Origin: a virus
IMG/VR virus record: IMGVR_UViG_3300032053_000600
Span: 1 to 21,888 of that record
Length of the DNA: 21,888 nucleotides
Direction: 5' to 3' (one strand)
Numbering within the stretch: position 1 is the first letter of the stretch; every line of letters starts with the position of its first letter. Under the pieces are notes generated by a model, which was given only the letters and a program-made list of their open reading frames with translations, made no database searches and had not been told where the DNA came from. Made by a program: the position numbers and the translations under genes. Of this stretch, positions 137 to 8,670 are shown piece after piece.

Positions 137-3100
137 ATGGCAGACTTAAACGAACTTAAATCCTTATTAGCGGAACTATATGAATACTTTAAAGAAACAT
201 TAGATTTTAAAGAAGATGTCAAATCGGTTAAACTCCTTCCAGATAAACAAAATGGTGAATTAATTTTAGGTAAAACCGCTCATTATGATCCTGAAAATTC
301 TGAAATTGTCTTATACACCTTTGGTCGACATCCAAAAGATATTCTTCGAAGTTTCGGTCATGAATTGGTTCATCACAAACAACGATGCGAAGGACAGTTT
401 AGAAATTTATCAACAATGTCAAATACATATGCACAGGACGACAAAGAGCTGAGAGAGGCAGAAAAACAAGCATATCTTGAAGGAAATATGCTTTTTAGAG
501 ACTGGGAAGATAGCAAAAAATATGGGCAATCTCAGCAATTAAATGAAAATAAATTGTCTAATTTAGGTTTTGTTTATTATAGAGGCACTATACCTGGAGA
601 AACTAAAAGAATTAAAACAGGAAGAGATACTTGGGATCGTTATTTGTTCGTAACAGAAAAACCAGAAAACGCAAAATGGTATGGAAGCGATATTGAAAAA
701 ATTATTTTATACCCCGAAGCTAAAATTTTAAGAGAAAGAACACAGGAATTTATTCGAATTGCGGGCAAACCTCGTAAAGGCGAATCAATGTTGGAGTATG
801 TTGATCGTGCCGCATTAAAAGCTAAAGCGGCAGGGTATGATGCAATACATTTTGAAAGACAAACGGATATTGGTACAGCTATTTTAAATCTAGATTCTAT
901 ATTTCAACGAGAGAAAATAAATGAATCTCAGCAATTAAACGAAGGTGGAGCTTATGGTCATATGAATCATTTGTATGACAACCTAGAGCTTACTTTTGCT
1001 CAAATAAAAGATATCTTTCAAAAAGCTGCTGGCGGTGAACTGGTTGGAACTGAAAAAGTTGATGGAGTAAACATTTATATTTCTTATTCTTTAGCTAATA
1101 ATGAGCCACGGGCCGCCAGGAACAAGGGCCAGCTTTTGGGGGGAGGGGTTAACGCTAAAGAACTGTCTAATAAATTTGCAGATAGAGGGTCGCTTGGAGA
1201 GGCGTTTAATGAGGCGTTTGAAGCGTGGAACAAAGTTGTTCGTGTTGTTCCTAAAAAGTATCTTTTAAAATTGTTTGGTGAAGATGCTGATATCTTTTAC
1301 AACGCAGAGATTCAAGATCCCAGAGCCTCGAACGTTGTTCGGTATGATACTAAAAATTTAATATTTCATCCTTCTGGTCATGTGTATGTAAACAAACAAG
1401 AGCAGAAAATTCAACTACTTCCGGACTCGTCAGAGAATTGGAAATTATTAAATTCTGTTTTAGAAAGACAAAAGAAATCTGACCACGATTACAATGTAAT
1501 TACTCAGGCGGTTAATAGATTGCAAGCTCTTTCAAATAAAGAGCCTTTATTGAATGCTCTACGACATTTAGAACAAGTACAAGGTCAGTACAGTATTAAA
1601 GACGAGCAAACTATCGAAGATTATATGATTGCTCACATTAATGAAATCTTTAAAAAGTCACAAGTTCTGCTGCCAGACGAAATACAACAATTACTAATAA
1701 AAAGGATTTTAGGATTTAAAGGTGTTACGATTAATTCTATTATTCGTGCTCTTCCAAAAAATGAAGATATTTCTGCGCAGAAGGCGAAGGTTCGTTCGGT
1801 TGTTGCAAATGGAAAAAACATATTAAAGACTGCGATTGAACCGCTTGAACACACAATTCATGATTTTTCTGTTGAGATGTTAAAAGGATTGAGAAGTGCA
1901 TTTATTTTGGATCAAGATGAAGAAGTTAAGCGATTGCAGCGAGAATTAGCAACGGCAATTAAAACAATTGAAAAAACGGGCGACAAGACTGCGACTCAAG
2001 TTCTTTTGGCGCAGATGAATAAGATAAAAAATATTGAAAACGTATCTGCCGCTGCCGAAGGATTTGTATTTGATTATAACGGAAAGGTTTATAAATTTAC
2101 AGGTAATTTTGCTCCGATCAATCAAATATTGGGATTGTTTAAGTATGGAAAAGGAAGTTTAAATTTGGAAGTTGGGCAGGGAGAAGAATCGCCGGATGAA
2201 GTAAAAAATGACGATCAAAAGGATGCGATCGTAGAAAGCATTATGGCTTCTATTCTTCAAGAATCTCCCAAACAAGACGCTTTAAACAAATATCCTAATG
2301 AAAAACAAGCGGTCGAATATTTCATTCAAGAGTTATCAAGCGATAAGCATAAATATTTGCTTTGGACGATGAAGCAATATGTTGATTTGAAAGGAAAAGT
2401 TAATCTTCAGGAAATTGAACTTTTGGACAAAATTATATTTAATGTTCGTTTATTTGATGAACACAGAAAAGAACTTGAAAAGAAGGATCTTTTTGGTTAT
2501 AAAACTTTCAAGGAATTGCTTCAAGCACTTGAACCGTTGAAGCAGCAAGCTGCAACGTCAAACAATGAACCAAATCAGCCTTCCGAAGAAGATCCCTTTT
2601 CTTCGGTTCAAGACGACCAAACGAGCGGTAAGCGTGTTTATGAGGACAAAGAGTGGTTGATTATCGAGCCTGATAACGCTGAACAATCTTGTAAATATGG
2701 GGCTGGAACAACGTGGTGCATTTCTGCCGAAAAAGAAAATTGGTTCAATCACTATAAAGAGGCGCAATGTCGTCCGGTTTTTGTTATCAATAGAAGTCTA
2801 TCTTCTCAATTGACAAAAGAAATTCAACGTCGAGGTTTAAAGTCTAAAAAGGAAATAGCAGCGTTTTTGGGAACAAACGAAGCCGGAGATCTTTGCTATC
2901 ATAAGGTGGCAGTTGTTGGTTGCGGTAGAAAGCAACTGAACAAAGTGTTTCCCGGCATTCAATTTCCCGAAGGACGCTTGGTGTTGGAGGAGATACGAGA
3001 TGCAACGCAATTAAAATCTTCGGCAGAAATTCGTTCTAAATTACCTAGTGAAATCTTTAAAAAGGTATGGAGCTTTCTTGGTTTGTATGAATTTACGGAA

Positions 3101-4831
3101 GAAGAACAGTTATATAACTTAGAAAAATATGGGCCAAAATTTTTAACAGTCTTGATTGAGCCCGCTCCAAAAGTAAAAGCGCTTGTAAACGATGTTCGCT
3201 GGCAGCTTGAAGCCGTAAAGCAAAATGGAGATGCAATCCATTATATCCGCAACCCATCAGAGGCTGTCCAACTTGAAGCCGTAAAGAAAAATGGAGATGC
3301 AATCCGGTATGTCAACAACCCATCAGAGGCTGTTCAGCTTGACGCCGTAAAGAAATATGGAAATGCAATCAAGTATATCAACAACCCATCAGAGGCTGTC
3401 CAGCTTGCAGCCGTAAAGGAACATGGATATGCAATCCAGTATATCAACAACCCATCAGAAGCTGTCCAGCTTGAAGCCGTAAAGGAAAATGGAAATGTAA
3501 TCCAGCATATCAAAAACCCATCAGAGGCTGTTCAGCTTGAAGCCGTAAAGCAATATGGATGTGCAATCCAGTATATCAGCAACCCATCAGAGGCTGTCCA
3601 GCTTGAAGCCGTAAAGCGAAATGGAGATGCAATCCAGCATATCAGCAACCCATCAGAGGCTGTTCGGCTTGAAGCCGTAAAGCAAGATGGAGATGCAATC
3701 AAGTATATCAACAACCCATCAGAGGCTGTTCAGCTTGAAGCCGTAAAGAAATATGGATATGCAATCAAGTATATCAACAACCCATCAGAAGCTGTCCAGC
3801 TTGAAGCCGTAAAGCAAAATGGATATGCAATCCAGCATATCAACAACCCATCAGAGGCTGTCCAGCTTGAAGCCGTAAAGCAAAATGGATATGCAATCCA
3901 GCATATCAACAACCCATCAGAGGCTGTCCAACTTAAAGCCGTAAAGCAAAATGGATATGCAATCAGGTATTGTCCCAGCAAGTTTACACTTTCAATGGCT
4001 GAAATTTATAGGCGAATAAATGCAGAAAAGGATAGAGAACAAATAAAAGAATCGAAAAAGCAACAATTAACAGAAAACAGGTTAAATAGTGGATCTCCGA
4101 TTAAAGTTGCATTTTTTCCAGGAGCATTCAAACCGCCCCATGCTGGTCATTATAATGTTGTTAAGAGCTTACTAGCGGAACATGGTGCAGAGGAAGTAAG
4201 AATAATTATTTCTCGTTTGCCGAGAGGCGACGATTTAAAAGAAATATCAGTGGATGCAGAGCAGTCGCTTAAAGTTTGGGAAGCATACACAAAAAATGAT
4301 AGCAAAGTTTCCATACAGGTTTCACGATTTAGCACTCCTTTGGTTGAAGCTCTGGAGCAAATGAGATCTTTCGGTGAAGGGGATACGATTCTTTTTGTTG
4401 CTTCTACAAAAGAAGATAACAAACAAAGATTTGCCATTCAAGGAACTTTTAATAGAACCGGTTCAAAAGCAAAGTTTCTTCCAGTTGAAGTCCCAGTTTC
4501 TTTGGACGTGGGAGCGACGCAACTTAGACAGTTGGCAATAGAGCAAAAGACAGAAGAATTTTATAAATATCTCCCACAGCATTTGAGTAGAAAAGAGAAA
4601 TTAAACGTCTGGACGATTGTAACAAACAAGACAAGAAATAAAAAACTGCAAGAAAGCTCTAATTACGGTATAATTAAAGAGATTGAGGAAGAAATCCTTA
4701 ACGAGATTTCAGCAATGGCAGGAGGAGCAGTTTCGGGAGTCGCGGGAGGAATTGGATTTGCTCCTCAAAAAGTAGAGGATGACGATAATTTAGTTAACGA
4801 AATTCTTGAATTTATTAAGAGAGGGAACTAA
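137..4831 (+). CDS. Giant polyvalent polyprotein: metallopeptidase / ART-like / ligase-like / WC-motif domain / DUF4116 repeats / NMNAT-like
   Basis: AAGGA at 123-127 sets this ATG. Visible modules: residues 1-137 carry HELVH (75-79) and a downstream E-A-E-K-Q-A-Y helix, as in zinc metallopeptidases. Residues 138-269 have YYRGT (147-151), an F-V-T-E..A..Y-G stretch (171-183) and A-G-Y-D-A-I (232-237), resembling phage ADP-ribosyltransferase (ART) domains. Residues 270-709 carry EKVDG with K307 as presumed nucleotidyl lysine, R-N-K-G, E391, EGFVF (641-645) and K653, in the order of ligase motifs but with about 250 residues between the third and fourth. Residues 710-1016 include GAGTTWC (855-861). 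Residues 1017-1280 are twelve 22-residue DUF4116-like repeats. Residues 1314-1506 hold G-A-F-K-P-P-H-A-G-H (HxGH at 1335-1338) and a late A-T-Q-L-R (1460-1464), as in NMNAT-type adenylyltransferases. QQLNE or QQLTE at 133-137, 265-269 and 1309-1313, and LxE at 707-709, 1504-1506 and 1521-1523, mark most junctions. The architecture fits the polyvalent proteins described by Iyer and colleagues. Virion packaging and proteolytic cutting are inferred. Individual enzyme activities are predictions from motifs. Confidence 0.8.
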   Translation: MADLNELKSLLAELYEYFKETLDFKEDVKSVKLLPDKQNGELILGKTAHYDPENSEIVLYTFGRHPKDILRSFGHELVHHKQRCEGQFRNLSTMSNTYAQDDKELREAEKQAYLEGNMLFRDWEDSKKYGQSQQLNENKLSNLGFVYYRGTIPGETKRIKTGRDTWDRYLFVTEKPENAKWYGSDIEKIILYPEAKILRERTQEFIRIAGKPRKGESMLEYVDRAALKAKAAGYDAIHFERQTDIGTAILNLDSIFQREKINESQQLNEGGAYGHMNHLYDNLELTFAQIKDIFQKAAGGELVGTEKVDGVNIYISYSLANNEPRAARNKGQLLGGGVNAKELSNKFADRGSLGEAFNEAFEAWNKVVRVVPKKYLLKLFGEDADIFYNAEIQDPRASNVVRYDTKNLIFHPSGHVYVNKQEQKIQLLPDSSENWKLLNSVLERQKKSDHDYNVITQAVNRLQALSNKEPLLNALRHLEQVQGQYSIKDEQTIEDYMIAHINEIFKKSQVLLPDEIQQLLIKRILGFKGVTINSIIRALPKNEDISAQKAKVRSVVANGKNILKTAIEPLEHTIHDFSVEMLKGLRSAFILDQDEEVKRLQRELATAIKTIEKTGDKTATQVLLAQMNKIKNIENVSAAAEGFVFDYNGKVYKFTGNFAPINQILGLFKYGKGSLNLEVGQGEESPDEVKNDDQKDAIVESIMASILQESPKQDALNKYPNEKQAVEYFIQELSSDKHKYLLWTMKQYVDLKGKVNLQEIELLDKIIFNVRLFDEHRKELEKKDLFGYKTFKELLQALEPLKQQAATSNNEPNQPSEEDPFSSVQDDQTSGKRVYEDKEWLIIEPDNAEQSCKYGAGTTWCISAEKENWFNHYKEAQCRPVFVINRSLSSQLTKEIQRRGLKSKKEIAAFLGTNEAGDLCYHKVAVVGCGRKQLNKVFPGIQFPEGRLVLEEIRDATQLKSSAEIRSKLPSEIFKKVWSFLGLYEFTEEEQLYNLEKYGPKFLTVLIEPAPKVKALVNDVRWQLEAVKQNGDAIHYIRNPSEAVQLEAVKKNGDAIRYVNNPSEAVQLDAVKKYGNAIKYINNPSEAVQLAAVKEHGYAIQYINNPSEAVQLEAVKENGNVIQHIKNPSEAVQLEAVKQYGCAIQYISNPSEAVQLEAVKRNGDAIQHISNPSEAVRLEAVKQDGDAIKYINNPSEAVQLEAVKKYGYAIKYINNPSEAVQLEAVKQNGYAIQHINNPSEAVQLEAVKQNGYAIQHINNPSEAVQLKAVKQNGYAIRYCPSKFTLSMAEIYRRINAEKDREQIKESKKQQLTENRLNSGSPIKVAFFPGAFKPPHAGHYNVVKSLLAEHGAEEVRIIISRLPRGDDLKEISVDAEQSLKVWEAYTKNDSKVSIQVSRFSTPLVEALEQMRSFGEGDTILFVASTKEDNKQRFAIQGTFNRTGSKAKFLPVEVPVSLDVGATQLRQLAIEQKTEEFYKYLPQHLSRKEKLNVWTIVTNKTRNKKLQESSNYGIIKEIEEEILNEISAMAGGAVSGVAGGIGFAPQKVEDDDNLVNEILEFIKRGN
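533..547 (+). other. Predicted prohead-protease site 1 (QQLNE)
   Basis: This encodes Q-Q-L-N-E, residues 133-137, between the metallopeptidase-like and ART-like domains. L-N-E fits the (L/I)-x-E rule known for the T4 prohead protease gp21, which cuts after the glutamate. A bare LxE is common by chance. The weight comes from the same five-residue string recurring at the next junction. Confidence 0.4.
929..943 (+). other. Predicted prohead-protease site 2 (QQLNE)
   Basis: This encodes Q-Q-L-N-E, residues 265-269, between the ART-like and ligase-like domains. It is followed by G-G, a flexible context. The flanking N-E-S-Q-Q-L-N-E matches site 1 beyond the core triplet. Confidence 0.4.
3185..3976 (+). 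repeat. Twelve in-frame 66-bp tandem repeats (DUF4116-like)
   Basis: The unit is 66 bases, or 22 codons. It encodes a consensus of N-P-S-E-A-V-Q-L-E-A-V-K followed by x-x-G-x-A-I-x-x-I-x. Eleven copies start with the N-P-S-E codons at 3251 and every 66 bases after that up to 3911. The first copy (3185-3250) has a diverged start (V-N-D-V-R-W). Copies at 3779 and 3845 are almost identical in DNA, so amplification is recent or the array is homogenised by recombination. The A-V-K-x-x-G-x-A-I pattern matches DUF4116, a helical repeat domain of unknown function. Reading frame and spacing are strict, and no spacers occur between copies. Confidence 0.9.
4061..4075 (+). other. Predicted prohead-protease site 3 (QQLTE)
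   Basis: This encodes Q-Q-L-T-E, residues 1309-1313, just before the NMNAT-like domain. It is a close variant of the QQLNE strings at 133-137 and 265-269. It sits in a short lysine-rich linker after the DUF4116 repeats. Confidence 0.4.
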
Positions 4832-4834
4832 TAA

Positions 4835-5692
4835 ATGGTTGACAGGATGAAGTTTATTAAAGAAATGCAGGAAAAAGAACAATTACGACCATATGTTCGA
4901 AAGAAGGTACAAGAATTTTTCTCTCATAGAAATGGAGAGAGAAAACAAGAAATTTTAGAAGAACAACAACTTCGCTCTGTTATTCGTCAAATTATTAAAG
5001 AAGGTCGAATGTTGCCAGCCCCGCATCCTTCAACCGGCGTTAATATGCTTATTGATCTATTAAAGAAAGTTGTTCCGATTATCAAAGCTGATTACCGGTT
5101 ATTAACAACTAATCAGGATCAGCGAAAATCATATCGAGCGCATTTAGTTGCGAATCTTAGCAAAACGCTGGAGAGGCAAGACTTACAAGATACGGCATCT
5201 TCGCAGGCCGCAGCAGGAGAACACCCTGCCGGAGCGCAAGCGCCGGCCCCGGAAGGAGTTCCAACCAATGTTCCTGGCGCGGGCCAAGAACTTACAGAGG
5301 CCGATCCAACCATGCAGGCAGCAGCGCTCGCCCCCGCGCCAGCGGCAAAAGGCGACGCCGATCCAAGCAAGTTTCTTGATATTGAAGAACCAAAAAAGAC
5401 TGATAAACTTCCGGGCGAAGATAAGAAATCGGAAGAGGATAAGAAAAAAGATTTTACTCTTGCTGGTCACGACTTGACCGGAAGAAATCGTGCGTATACA
5501 ACTTTCCAGAAGATTGAATCGGATATTTCAACCTCTTACAGCGAATTGTCTGCGAAGGTTGATAAGGATGTATTTAGGGATTATTTAATTACCAATGTTA
5601 AATTACACCTTGATCAAGCAGAGGGTGAAATGCAACCAGACATTCAAGAGCCGACCACTCAGCAGTATGAAAAAGAAAAAGGTACGGTTTAA
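4835..5692 (+). CDS. Putative internal head / prohead-core-like protein
   Basis: The 285-residue protein starts three bases after the polyprotein stop, with a GAGAGGGA-type ribosome binding site at 4819-4826. I do not recognise a named family. Residues 1-56 are charged and helical and end in I-I-K-E (53-56), followed by G-R-M-L. L-T-E occurs at 153-155. Both fit the (L/I)-x-E prohead-protease rule and recall the removable capsid-targeting N-termini of T4 internal proteins. A compact, hydrophobic-patterned region (about 60-118) is followed by an Ala/Pro-rich and then Lys/Asp/Glu-rich low-complexity linker (120-205). A second conserved-looking segment begins D-L-T-G-R-N-R (213-219) and ends near 265. 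An ATG at 4847 is an alternative start. Adjacency to the LxE-rich polyprotein supports a shared head-internal role, but this is inference. Confidence 0.55.
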   Translation: MVDRMKFIKEMQEKEQLRPYVRKKVQEFFSHRNGERKQEILEEQQLRSVIRQIIKEGRMLPAPHPSTGVNMLIDLLKKVVPIIKADYRLLTTNQDQRKSYRAHLVANLSKTLERQDLQDTASSQAAAGEHPAGAQAPAPEGVPTNVPGAGQELTEADPTMQAAALAPAPAAKGDADPSKFLDIEEPKKTDKLPGEDKKSEEDKKKDFTLAGHDLTGRNRAYTTFQKIESDISTSYSELSAKVDKDVFRDYLITNVKLHLDQAEGEMQPDIQEPTTQQYEKEKGTV

Positions 5693-6661: not shown

Positions 6662-7993
6662 ATGACTAGCAAAAAGAAAATTTATGTAATTGATACAAAT
6701 GTATTTTTAACCGATCCAAATTCAATTGTACAATATTCAAAAGAAGACGATGTTGTCATTCCTTTTAAAGTGTTGGAAGAGGTTGACAATCATAAAAATC
6801 GTCAAGATTCTGTCGGTGTTAATGCACGTTGTTTTATTCGATTTTTAGACGAATTGAGAGGATTAGGCTCTCTTTACAAAGGTGTTTCGTTTGGGAATCA
6901 AGCAGGTCAGATTTTTATTCGTTTGTTTGATGCCGTATATTTGCCAGAAGGGTTTGACCGTTCGGACGCGGACAATCAAATTATTTCCGTTGCGATAAAA
7001 GAAAAACAAAATAGCGGTCAAAAGGTTGTTCTTGTTTCAAAAGATATTAATATGCGAGTTAAGTGTGATGCGCTTGATTTGAGATGTGATGAATTCTCGG
7101 AGAGCGGAGAAATAAAGAATATTTCTTATTTGTATTCTGGATATAAGGAATTAGAAATTGATGACGTGTTGATTGATAAATTTTATGAAGATGGCGACAT
7201 TGCTTCAAAATTAGGGAAAACAATTCTAAAGAACCTGTACCCAAATCAACTTCTTTTGCTTAGATCAAAATCTTCTGAGAAAAAAACAGCGTTGGCAAGG
7301 TTTATTTCAGATTCCAAACCTTTGGTTAATGTAGTTGATAGAACTGCGAATGAGGACTTTTTTGGTTTGGTTCCTAGAAATAAAGAACAAAAATTTGCCT
7401 TAGATCTTTTGACGGATACAAATATTTCTTTGGTAACGTTAACCGGAAAGTCTGGGTCTGGAAAAACCATATTGTCAATAGCTGCCGGGCTACATAGCGT
7501 TCTTAATAAAAAGATATATAAAAAAATTGTTGTTATTCGCCCAATTGTTACGTTGGGAAAGGATCTGGGGTATTTGCCAGGAACGGTTGAAGAGAAATTG
7601 TCACCATTTACTACTCCTATTATTGATAATTTAACTTTTCTTCTTGGAGGGGATAAAAGAACATTAGAAGGATATTTTGAGCAAGGAGTTATTGAAGTGG
7701 AAGCGATGCCGTATATTCGAGGAAGAAGTATTGCAAATAGTTTTATGCTGATAGACGAAGTTCAGAATATTTCGCTTCACGAAATTAAAACAATTTTGAC
7801 TCGCGCCGGGGAAGGAACAAAAATTGTTTTGACAGGGGATCTCAATCAAATTGACAATATTCACTTAACAGAAGTAACAAGTGGACTGACTTATGCGGTA
7901 GAGAAGTTTAAGAGCTATGAGATATCGGGACATATTTCCCTGGTAAAAGGAGAGCGCAGCGCCCTGGCAACGCTAGCGTCAGAAATATTGTAA
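6662..7993 (+). CDS. phoH: PIN-PhoH fusion (PhoH2-type) ATPase / RNase
   Basis: This 443-residue protein joins an N-terminal PIN ribonuclease domain to a C-terminal PhoH ATPase. PIN acidic residues are visible: D11 in V-I-D-T-N, E39/E40, D102/D104 in S-D-A-D-N-Q, and D128 in S-K-D. The PhoH part has Walker A GKSGSGKT at 262-269, I-R-P-I-V-T-L-G-K-D, and Walker B L-I-D-E (363-366), followed by V-Q-N. T-G-D-L-N-Q-I-D comes later, as in PhoH/RecD-like ATPases. The PIN-PhoH layout is that of PhoH2 proteins, for which RNA helicase and RNase activity have been reported in mycobacteria. PhoH genes are frequent in T4-like marine phages, where their role is still debated. The stop overlaps the next ATG (TAATG), implying translational coupling. 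Confidence 0.9.
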   Translation: MTSKKKIYVIDTNVFLTDPNSIVQYSKEDDVVIPFKVLEEVDNHKNRQDSVGVNARCFIRFLDELRGLGSLYKGVSFGNQAGQIFIRLFDAVYLPEGFDRSDADNQIISVAIKEKQNSGQKVVLVSKDINMRVKCDALDLRCDEFSESGEIKNISYLYSGYKELEIDDVLIDKFYEDGDIASKLGKTILKNLYPNQLLLLRSKSSEKKTALARFISDSKPLVNVVDRTANEDFFGLVPRNKEQKFALDLLTDTNISLVTLTGKSGSGKTILSIAAGLHSVLNKKIYKKIVVIRPIVTLGKDLGYLPGTVEEKLSPFTTPIIDNLTFLLGGDKRTLEGYFEQGVIEVEAMPYIRGRSIANSFMLIDEVQNISLHEIKTILTRAGEGTKIVLTGDLNQIDNIHLTEVTSGLTYAVEKFKSYEISGHISLVKGERSALATLASEIL

Positions 7994-8670
7994 TGGGAAT
8001 GTTTTCTAATAACTACGTGTCGGTAGATAATAAGAAAAGCGCAATTTTAGGTGGGAATATCCAACTTACGATTGAAGATGATGATTTTGCCGAGAAAATT
8101 GATTTTGTCGAGCAGGTGTTTAATAAAATTAAGAAATCTTTGCCGCCTCTTTTTTTAACACTTATTCATGGAATTAAAGTTGGGAAATATGATTTTCTAG
8201 GAGACGGAGTGGAATCTGTTTATCAATCTGGCGTTATTTATTTGAATAGTTTGCAAACTAACCCCAAAAATATTGCAAAAAATATTATTCACGAGATTGC
8301 TCATGCGGTCGAAGAGAAGAAATATAAAACAGTTTATGGGGATGAGGAGCTGAAAGAAGAATTTTTAGCGAAGAAAGAACGGTTATACTACACGCTAGGC
8401 CAGATGTATCCCAACCGCCTTCCAGATAGAGAATCTTTTCTTTCAATTAACGCAAATAAGTCTTCGGATCAATTTTTGTTAAACGTTGTGGGATATGACA
8501 AATTAAAGACAATTATTGATGGATTGTTTGTTTCTCCTTATGCCACATATTCTTTACGAGAGTATTTTGCAAGAGGTTTTGAGGACTTCTTTTTAACCAG
8601 CGAAAAAAGAAAATTCTTGCAACAAACCTGCCCCATGTTATACTTCAAAGTAGAATCCGTTTGTTTTTAG
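7993..8670 (+). CDS. HExxH zinc-metallopeptidase-like protein
   Basis: This encodes 225 residues. HEIAH at 100-104 is a zinc-binding HExxH helix, preceded by an I-Y-L-N strand typical of such peptidases. A second helix, S-L-R-E-Y-F-A-R-G-F-E-D-F-F (187-200), offers E190 or E197 as the third ligand, as in gluzincins that carry an E-x-F-A motif. No signal peptide or membrane helix is seen, so it probably acts in the cytoplasm or within the virion. The substrate is unknown. Translation is coupled to PIN-PhoH by the TAATG overlap. It is distinct from the HELVH domain at the start of the polyprotein. Confidence 0.65.
   Translation: MGMFSNNYVSVDNKKSAILGGNIQLTIEDDDFAEKIDFVEQVFNKIKKSLPPLFLTLIHGIKVGKYDFLGDGVESVYQSGVIYLNSLQTNPKNIAKNIIHEIAHAVEEKKYKTVYGDEELKEEFLAKKERLYYTLGQMYPNRLPDRESFLSINANKSSDQFLLNVVGYDKLKTIIDGLFVSPYATYSLREYFARGFEDFFLTSEKRKFLQQTCPMLYFKVESVCF

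What the first reader, a model, noticed from the sequence alone, without database searches (positions are those of the whole stretch)
137..4831. LxE-partitioned 'polyvalent' polyprotein, possibly packed in the capsid and cut into separate enzymes
Seen: one 1564-codon frame joins at least five unrelated domains. QQLNE/QQLTE recurs at three junctions (residues 133-137, 265-269, 1309-1313), and further LxE triplets sit at 707-709, 1504-1506 and 1521-1523. Known: T4 gp21 cuts after (L/I)-x-E in head proteins, including internal proteins and the ART Alt, and polyvalent proteins mix metallopeptidase, ART and NTase domains. Inferred: maturation releases fragments of about 137, 132, 440, 604 and 193 residues that enter the cell with the DNA. 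LxE alone would occur about 20 times by chance in a protein this size, so the recurrence of the whole five-residue string at junctions is the real argument.
Basis: partly seen in the sequence, partly recalled or inferred. Interest (0 to 1): 0.85.

Follow-up and report, generated by a model that had tools for sequence, protein, structure and literature searches.

The report
Phage multi-enzyme protein with capsid-protease sites
A bacterial virus encodes one long chain of several linked enzymes whose joints carry the short tag that T4-type viruses cut while their head matures, and related viruses keep that tag at the same joints, so the chain is probably packed in the head, cut into separate enzymes and delivered with the DNA.

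Summary
The 1564-codon frame and all listed LxE strings are real. Relatives carry the modules as separate genes or in other orders. In 43 of 43 distinct ligase modules with enough residues upstream, the module is preceded by [LI]xE|GG with a variable x; ten others begin at that point with Met. 22 of 23 ligase-to-cytidylyltransferase linkers hold [LI]xE. Relatives encode a T4-type gp21 protease and gp23. A profile built only from their gp23 maturation region finds, outside gp23, this protein first (LNE1523|ISAMAGGAVSGVAG). Many genes of relatives carry leaders with T4's capsid-targeting spacing (WxxFLxE; T4 MKTYQEFIAE). Best reading: head-packaged cargo polyprotein processed by the capsid protease, probably after E137, E269, E709, E1313 and E1523 rather than E1506. 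Virion presence and cleavage are not shown, the window lacks gp21/gp23, and the ADP-ribosyltransferase label is unconfirmed.

The parts
137..4831 (+). polyprotein ORF, 1564 aa
137..154 (+). N-terminal MADLNE; LNE-6 sits where T4 Alt is cut (ITE-6); relatives of the peptidase start MNLNE, MELLLE, MIQLLNE
137..547 (+). zincin-like metallopeptidase module (HELVH at residues 75-79), a separate gene in most relatives
533..547 (+). QQLNE137, candidate cleavage site 1 (no comparative test possible: the next module has no relatives)
528..547 (+). copy 1 of the 20-nt direct repeat flanking the second module
924..943 (+). copy 2 of the 20-nt direct repeat, ends in QQLNE269
929..943 (+). QQLNE269|GG, candidate cleavage site 2; [LI]xE|GG conserved in 43 of 43 testable relatives, also in differently ordered fusions
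944..2263 (+). covalent nucleotidyltransferase (DNA/RNA-ligase-like) module; invariant E306 K307 D309 G310, E641 G642 V644 F645, K653
2255..2263 (+). LQE709|S, candidate cleavage site 3; aligns with the leader end of stand-alone homologues
2264..3196 (+). module with YGxGTxWC motif; a PA5oct homologue is annotated as a virion protein from ESI-MS/MS
3197..4036 (+). DUF4116 repeat array; no [LI]xE in residues 1040-1300
4061..4075 (+). QQLTE1313, candidate cleavage site 4; 22 of 23 ligase-to-cytidylyltransferase linkers in relatives hold [LI]xE
4076..4705 (+). cytidylyltransferase-like module (PGAFKPPHAGH)
4697..4747 (+). LNE1523|ISAMAGGAVSGVAG, candidate cleavage site 5; matches the gp23 maturation region of relatives
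4706..4828 (+). 41-residue C-terminal tail, predicted to be removed (T4 Alt loses 63 C-terminal residues)
4835..5692 (+). next ORF; fused behind the ligase/cytidylyltransferase in some relatives; function unknown

Best explanation
The protein is a cargo polyprotein of an uncultured T4-type phage. It is built into the prohead and cut there by the gp21-family capsid protease after [LI]xE in the linkers between modules. This releases a zincin peptidase, a small module of unknown function, a ligase-like nucleotidyltransferase, a YGxGTxWC plus DUF4116-repeat protein and a cytidylyltransferase-like enzyme, with a 41-residue tail removed at a site that copies the gp23 maturation region. The free enzymes would enter the host with the DNA. 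Shown: modules, strings, conservation at junctions, gp21 and gp23 in relatives, the shared gp23 motif and T4-spaced leaders on other genes. Inferred: packaging, cleavage and injection of this protein.
For: (1) The ligase module is preceded by [LI]xE|GG in 43 of 43 distinct relatives with enough upstream sequence. x varies over 10 residues, and this holds whether upstream lies a short leader (26) or other domains (17); ten genes start M-GG exactly there. It includes Mel-JY01 with reversed domain order (IAE|GG) and the syntenic nearest relative G027/L176 (LQLNE|GG). (2) [LI]xE lies in 22 of 23 ligase-cytidylyltransferase linkers; control patterns in 1-11. (3) Across related genomes 50 of 120 fusion junctions have [LI]xE against 22.9 +/- 4.5 at random positions. 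(4) A profile from gp23 alone ranks this protein first outside gp23, 28.5 bits against a shuffled maximum of 9.7; built without the LxE it finds mostly ligase ORFs, usually preceded by [LIVM]xE. (5) gp21 is found in 18 of 28 relative records searched, many of them fragments. (6) Leaders with T4 capsid-targeting spacing are enriched, 33 against about 3.6 expected; other spacings 0-1, T4 reference MKTYQEFIAE. (7) T4 gp21 cuts L/I-x-E and trims Alt at ITE-6 and LTE-619 (PMC9026906; PMC5694885). (8) In the ligase model site 269 lies in a disordered end, whereas internal LxE at 355 and 503 lie in confident helices.
Against: No virion proteomics and no observed cleavage. The window is a 22-kb fragment without gp21 or gp23 (gp21 search), so the protease is inferred from relatives. 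The protein has no T4-spaced targeting leader of its own. Ten relatives have no leader at the ligase. One distant fusion (L140) lacks LxE there. Some conserved LxE in clade-2 polyproteins lie inside a domain (residue 709 of L197). Relatives are not independent samples, and related giant phages vary in what they process (PMC5694885).
Confidence: 0.68

Rival explanations
1. Packaged but not cut between modules: the LxE strings are fossil leaders left when separate leader-bearing genes fused, and the protein works as one polyvalent chain, like N4 virion RNA polymerase.
For: Modules are separate leader-bearing genes in relatives. N4 vRNAP is packaged unprocessed (PMC5512222). Homologous head proteins differ in processing between related giant phages (PMC5694885).
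Against: L and E persist while x varies in 17 fused ligase proteins; an unused leader should decay. At site 709 the aromatic targeting residues of the stand-alone leader are gone but LxE stays (single case).
Confidence: 0.17
2. The N-terminal metallopeptidase module cuts the chain itself, as proposed for polyvalent proteins in general.
For: Iyer et al. 2017 propose embedded peptidases releasing the domains (PMC5512222). The module keeps HELVH.
Against: The sites match gp21 specificity and copy the gp23 maturation region. They are kept where the peptidase is a separate gene or placed elsewhere.
Confidence: 0.07
3. The [LI]xE before GG is only a folding cap of the ligase module or a linker-composition effect, without any protease.
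For: Linkers are E-rich; LxE is common by chance (28 in this protein).
Against: Ten ligase genes lack it entirely (M-GG), so it is not needed for folding. Control patterns and random positions are far lower. It cannot explain the gp23 motif at the C-terminus.
Confidence: 0.08

Closest known systems
T4 Alt and internal proteins IPI-III processed by gp21
   Same: [LI]xE sites, short N-terminal propeptides (Alt ITE-6; here LNE-6), a removed C-terminal tail (Alt LTE-619; here LNE-1523), gp21-family protease in relatives
   Different: Alt and the IPs each carry one protein; here several enzymes sit in one chain with sites between them; packaging and cleavage not shown here
Polyvalent proteins (Iyer et al. 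2017)
   Same: several unrelated enzymatic modules in one phage protein, predicted to be packaged and injected
   Different: release there is ascribed to embedded peptidases or none; here the sites are those of the capsid maturation protease. None of the terms DUF4116, cytidyl or ligase domain occurs in that paper's text
P1 DarB/DdrB head cargo
   Same: large head-packaged proteins with an N-terminal packaging signal (DarB, residues 1-30) and processing of DdrB
   Different: no shared modules shown, and no set of cuts between enzymes known
phiKZ/SPN3US inner-head proteins
   Same: prohead protease trims internal ejected proteins
   Different: motif is S/A/G-x-E or A-x-E there, propeptides are long, no multi-enzyme chain with cuts between enzymes

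Membership tests
T4-type gp21-processed head cargo | [LI]xE sites at propeptide or junction positions, conserved in relatives | tested here: met
T4-type gp21-processed head cargo | gp21 (Peptidase_S77) and gp23 encoded by the phage | tested here: inconclusive
   gp21 absent from the 22-kb window fragment; both present in relatives
T4-type gp21-processed head cargo | capsid targeting sequence with T4 spacing on the protein | tested here: not met
   not on this protein; present on many other genes of relatives and on a stand-alone homologue of module 4
T4-type gp21-processed head cargo | present and cleaved in virions | not testable with these tools
   only a distant homologue of module 4 (PA5oct EST35_0205) is annotated ESI-MS/MS
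Polyvalent proteins | several unrelated effector or enzyme domains in one phage polypeptide | tested here: met
Polyvalent proteins | shared domain families of the published set (ART, peptidase) | tested here: inconclusive
   peptidase-like HELVH only; ART not confirmed
Covalent nucleotidyltransferase (ligase) superfamily, module 3 | motif I KxDG, motif IV EGxVF, motif V lysine, and fold | tested here: met
   invariant in 40 sequences; model pLDDT 88; Foldseek top hits are DNA/RNA ligases, probability up to 0.99 but E 0.008 at best
ADP-ribosyltransferase, module 2 | ART family or fold match | tested here: inconclusive
   no match; fold model pLDDT 45

The most novel reading that the evidence does not exclude
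A lineage of uncultured T4-type phages uses its capsid protease as a polyprotein-processing enzyme. Cargo enzymes, alone or chained, carry T4-like targeting leaders or junction sites, and the chain ends in a copy of the gp23 maturation region, so cutting of the cargo is coupled to maturation of the shell.
Probability: 0.45. Interest if true: 0.9.

Novelty: new variant of a known kind. Interest (0 to 1): 0.8.

Why it matters
If true, tailed phages also use a polyprotein strategy: many different enzymes made as one chain, packed together in equal numbers and released inside the capsid by the protease that matures the shell. It would explain how polyvalent proteins are separated without an embedded peptidase, and it gives a sequence rule ([WYF]xx[FYW][LI]xE leaders, [LI]xE|GG, the gp23-like tail) for reading the injected cargo of uncultured phages from genomes alone.

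Tried and rejected
Recurrence of QQLNE as the main argument: rejected, partly a duplicated DNA linker. LQE1506 as the last cut: replaced by LNE1523, which has the gp23-like context. ADP-ribosyltransferase for module 2: no family, no PDB match, fold failed, no relatives in viral contigs. Single-sequence scans for modules 4 and 5 found nothing. Own-genome search for gp21: the record is only the window. LxE leaders of any kind counted over whole genomes show only mild enrichment; the specific T4-spaced form is what stands out. A search for cultured relatives of the ligase module found only Mel-JY01, for which no paper is in the library.

Full report
What is there. The ORF 137-4831 (+) encodes 1564 aa. 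The window is a 22-kb IMG/VR fragment, and its own record holds neither gp21 nor more sequence. The surrounding genes (PhoH, glycosyltransferases, VanY-like, gp25-like and baseplate wedge proteins) are those of a contractile-tailed phage; the glycosyltransferase label is from reading the translations only.

Chance. [LI]xE occurs 28 times against 23.5 expected, so triplets alone prove nothing. QQLxE is expected 0.05 times and found three times, but the first two copies share 19 of 20 nucleotides and flank the second module as a direct repeat. They may be one linker duplicated when that module was inserted; the nearest relative, which lacks the module, has a single LQLNE|GG junction there. I therefore did not rely on the recurrence.

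Natural dissection by relatives. In 26 related viral contigs the modules are usually separate genes. The ligase-like module begins either with a short leader ending LxE|GG (MNSFLLE|GG, MTSILSE|GG, MVKNLLNE|GG, MGTNVFLTE|GG) or directly with M-GG. A wider search gave 55 distinct N-termini: 43 with [LI]xE before GG, 10 starting M-GG, and 2 starting three to five residues upstream. The middle residue is L, N, S, V, M, T, K, I, Q or A. 17 of the 43 are fusions with other domains upstream: metallopeptidase (L176, LQLNE|GG), cytidylyltransferase first (Mel-JY01, IAE|GG), and a marine-type clade of about 1000-1700-aa polyproteins in a different domain order. One distant jumbo-phage fusion lacks it (L140; its start differs too much to be counted in the 55). 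The ligase-to-cytidylyltransferase linker holds [LI]xE in 22 of 23 relatives, while control patterns occur in 1 to 11.

Site 709. LQE709|SPKQDALNKYPN aligns without a gap with the end of MKLLLEKWEAYLEE|GKADDIVAKYPN, the start of a stand-alone homologue. Other homologues start CLEE|AM and TLYE|DK; adding one more sequence shifts that alignment, so this site is less certain. The TLYE|DK protein is PA5oct EST35_0205, annotated as structural from ESI-MS/MS.

A general test. In the gene sets of eight near-complete relatives plus all loci, 50 of 120 dereplicated fusion junctions have [LI]xE nearby, against 22.9 +/- 4.5 (maximum 34 of 200 draws) at random positions; other tripeptides are not enriched to this degree. 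The ligase family contributes part of this signal. Gene calls were my own simple ones.

Protease and capsid. gp21-family proteases are found in 11 of 21 and 7 of 7 relative records, many being fragments, and gp23 in 12 of 21 and 8 of 14. Their gp23 has, near residue 60, LLENQAKELLRE|ASSMAAGDVEGFA, close to where T4 removes a 65-residue propeptide (PMC9026906). A profile trained on eight gp23 sequences alone scores this protein highest among all non-gp23 proteins: 28.5 bits at LNE1523|ISAMAGGAVSGVAG, followed by ligase ORFs of three relatives at 23.2, 18.2 and 16.0; the shuffled maximum is 9.7, and the best unrelated real protein scores 14.7. A profile of the downstream residues only, without LxE, again finds mainly ligase ORFs, most preceded by [LIVM]xE. 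In that shorter form the window protein (19.6) is only just above the shuffled maximum (18.5), so the strength lies in the group of hits. That the gp23 site is cut there is itself inferred from T4.

Targeting leaders. In T4 IPIII residues 4 and 7 target and 8 and 10 are needed for cutting (PMC9026906), that is Y..FI.E in MKTYQEFIAE (verified). In the relatives, leaders such as MKLLMENWRKFLNE| have the same spacing (W -6, F -3, L -2, E 0). This pattern occurs in the first 24 residues of 33 of 963 proteins, 0 to 5 in later windows; shifted spacings give 0 or 1. The proteins behind these leaders look unrelated to each other, and the genes form arrays. The window protein has no such leader; its N-terminus is MADLNE|, with LNE at position 6 as in T4 Alt (ITE-6; PMC5694885).

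Modules. Module 3 has invariant EKxDG and EGxVF/YK motifs, a confident model (pLDDT 88), and its best structural matches are DNA/RNA ligases and tRNA ligases (probability up to 0.99, E-values 0.008 and weaker). Site 269 lies in the disordered start of this model, and LxE at 355 and 503 lie in helices with high confidence. Module 5 is cytidylyltransferase-like. Module 1 has HELVH. Module 2 stays unidentified.

Conclusion. The most likely mechanism is packaging into the prohead and cutting by gp21 after E137, E269, E709, E1313 and E1523, giving fragments of about 137, 132, 440, 604 and 210 residues and a 41-residue tail. Support is strongest for E269 and E1523, good for E1313, moderate for E709, and for E137 it rests on the string alone. 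Embedded-peptidase release was proposed for polyvalent proteins (PMC5512222); I found no paper in the library describing release by the capsid protease, which is a limited search.

Noticed in passing
G006:C1:9891-19506, G003:C1:162578-172063, G013:C1:160158-164326, G018:C1:150638-153642 (loci L058, L076, L124, L113): Arrays of apparently unrelated small genes whose proteins begin with a T4-like capsid-targeting leader, MK[LI][LI][MLF]ENWR[KR][FY]LxE|; probably injected cargo.
   Followed up: partly
relatives, e.g. G003:C1:95789-96953: A second shared N-terminal leader, MKITKxQLKQIIKEEL, on many proteins that otherwise look unrelated; role unknown.
   Followed up: no
G003:C1:162578-165028: An 816-aa protein with a T4-spaced leader at its start and a similar string (LFEGWRKFLNT) at its very end.
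   Followed up: no
G025:C1:47588-47959 (L239): The gp21-type protease lies in a 612-aa open frame, about three times the usual length.
   Followed up: no
G027:C1:125542-126876: A protein whose start resembles module 4 of the window protein is followed by a stretch with YHGT, a motif I associate with ADP-ribosyltransferases; not tested.
   Followed up: no
G013:C1:174293-180940 (L015:4943-11590): A 2215-aa protein with three stretches matching the YGxGTxWC module.
   Followed up: no
window 7993-8670: Second zincin-like gene, next to PhoH, just under the Pfam cut-off for the lethal-factor-type domain (27.2 bits, cut-off 27.4).
   Followed up: no
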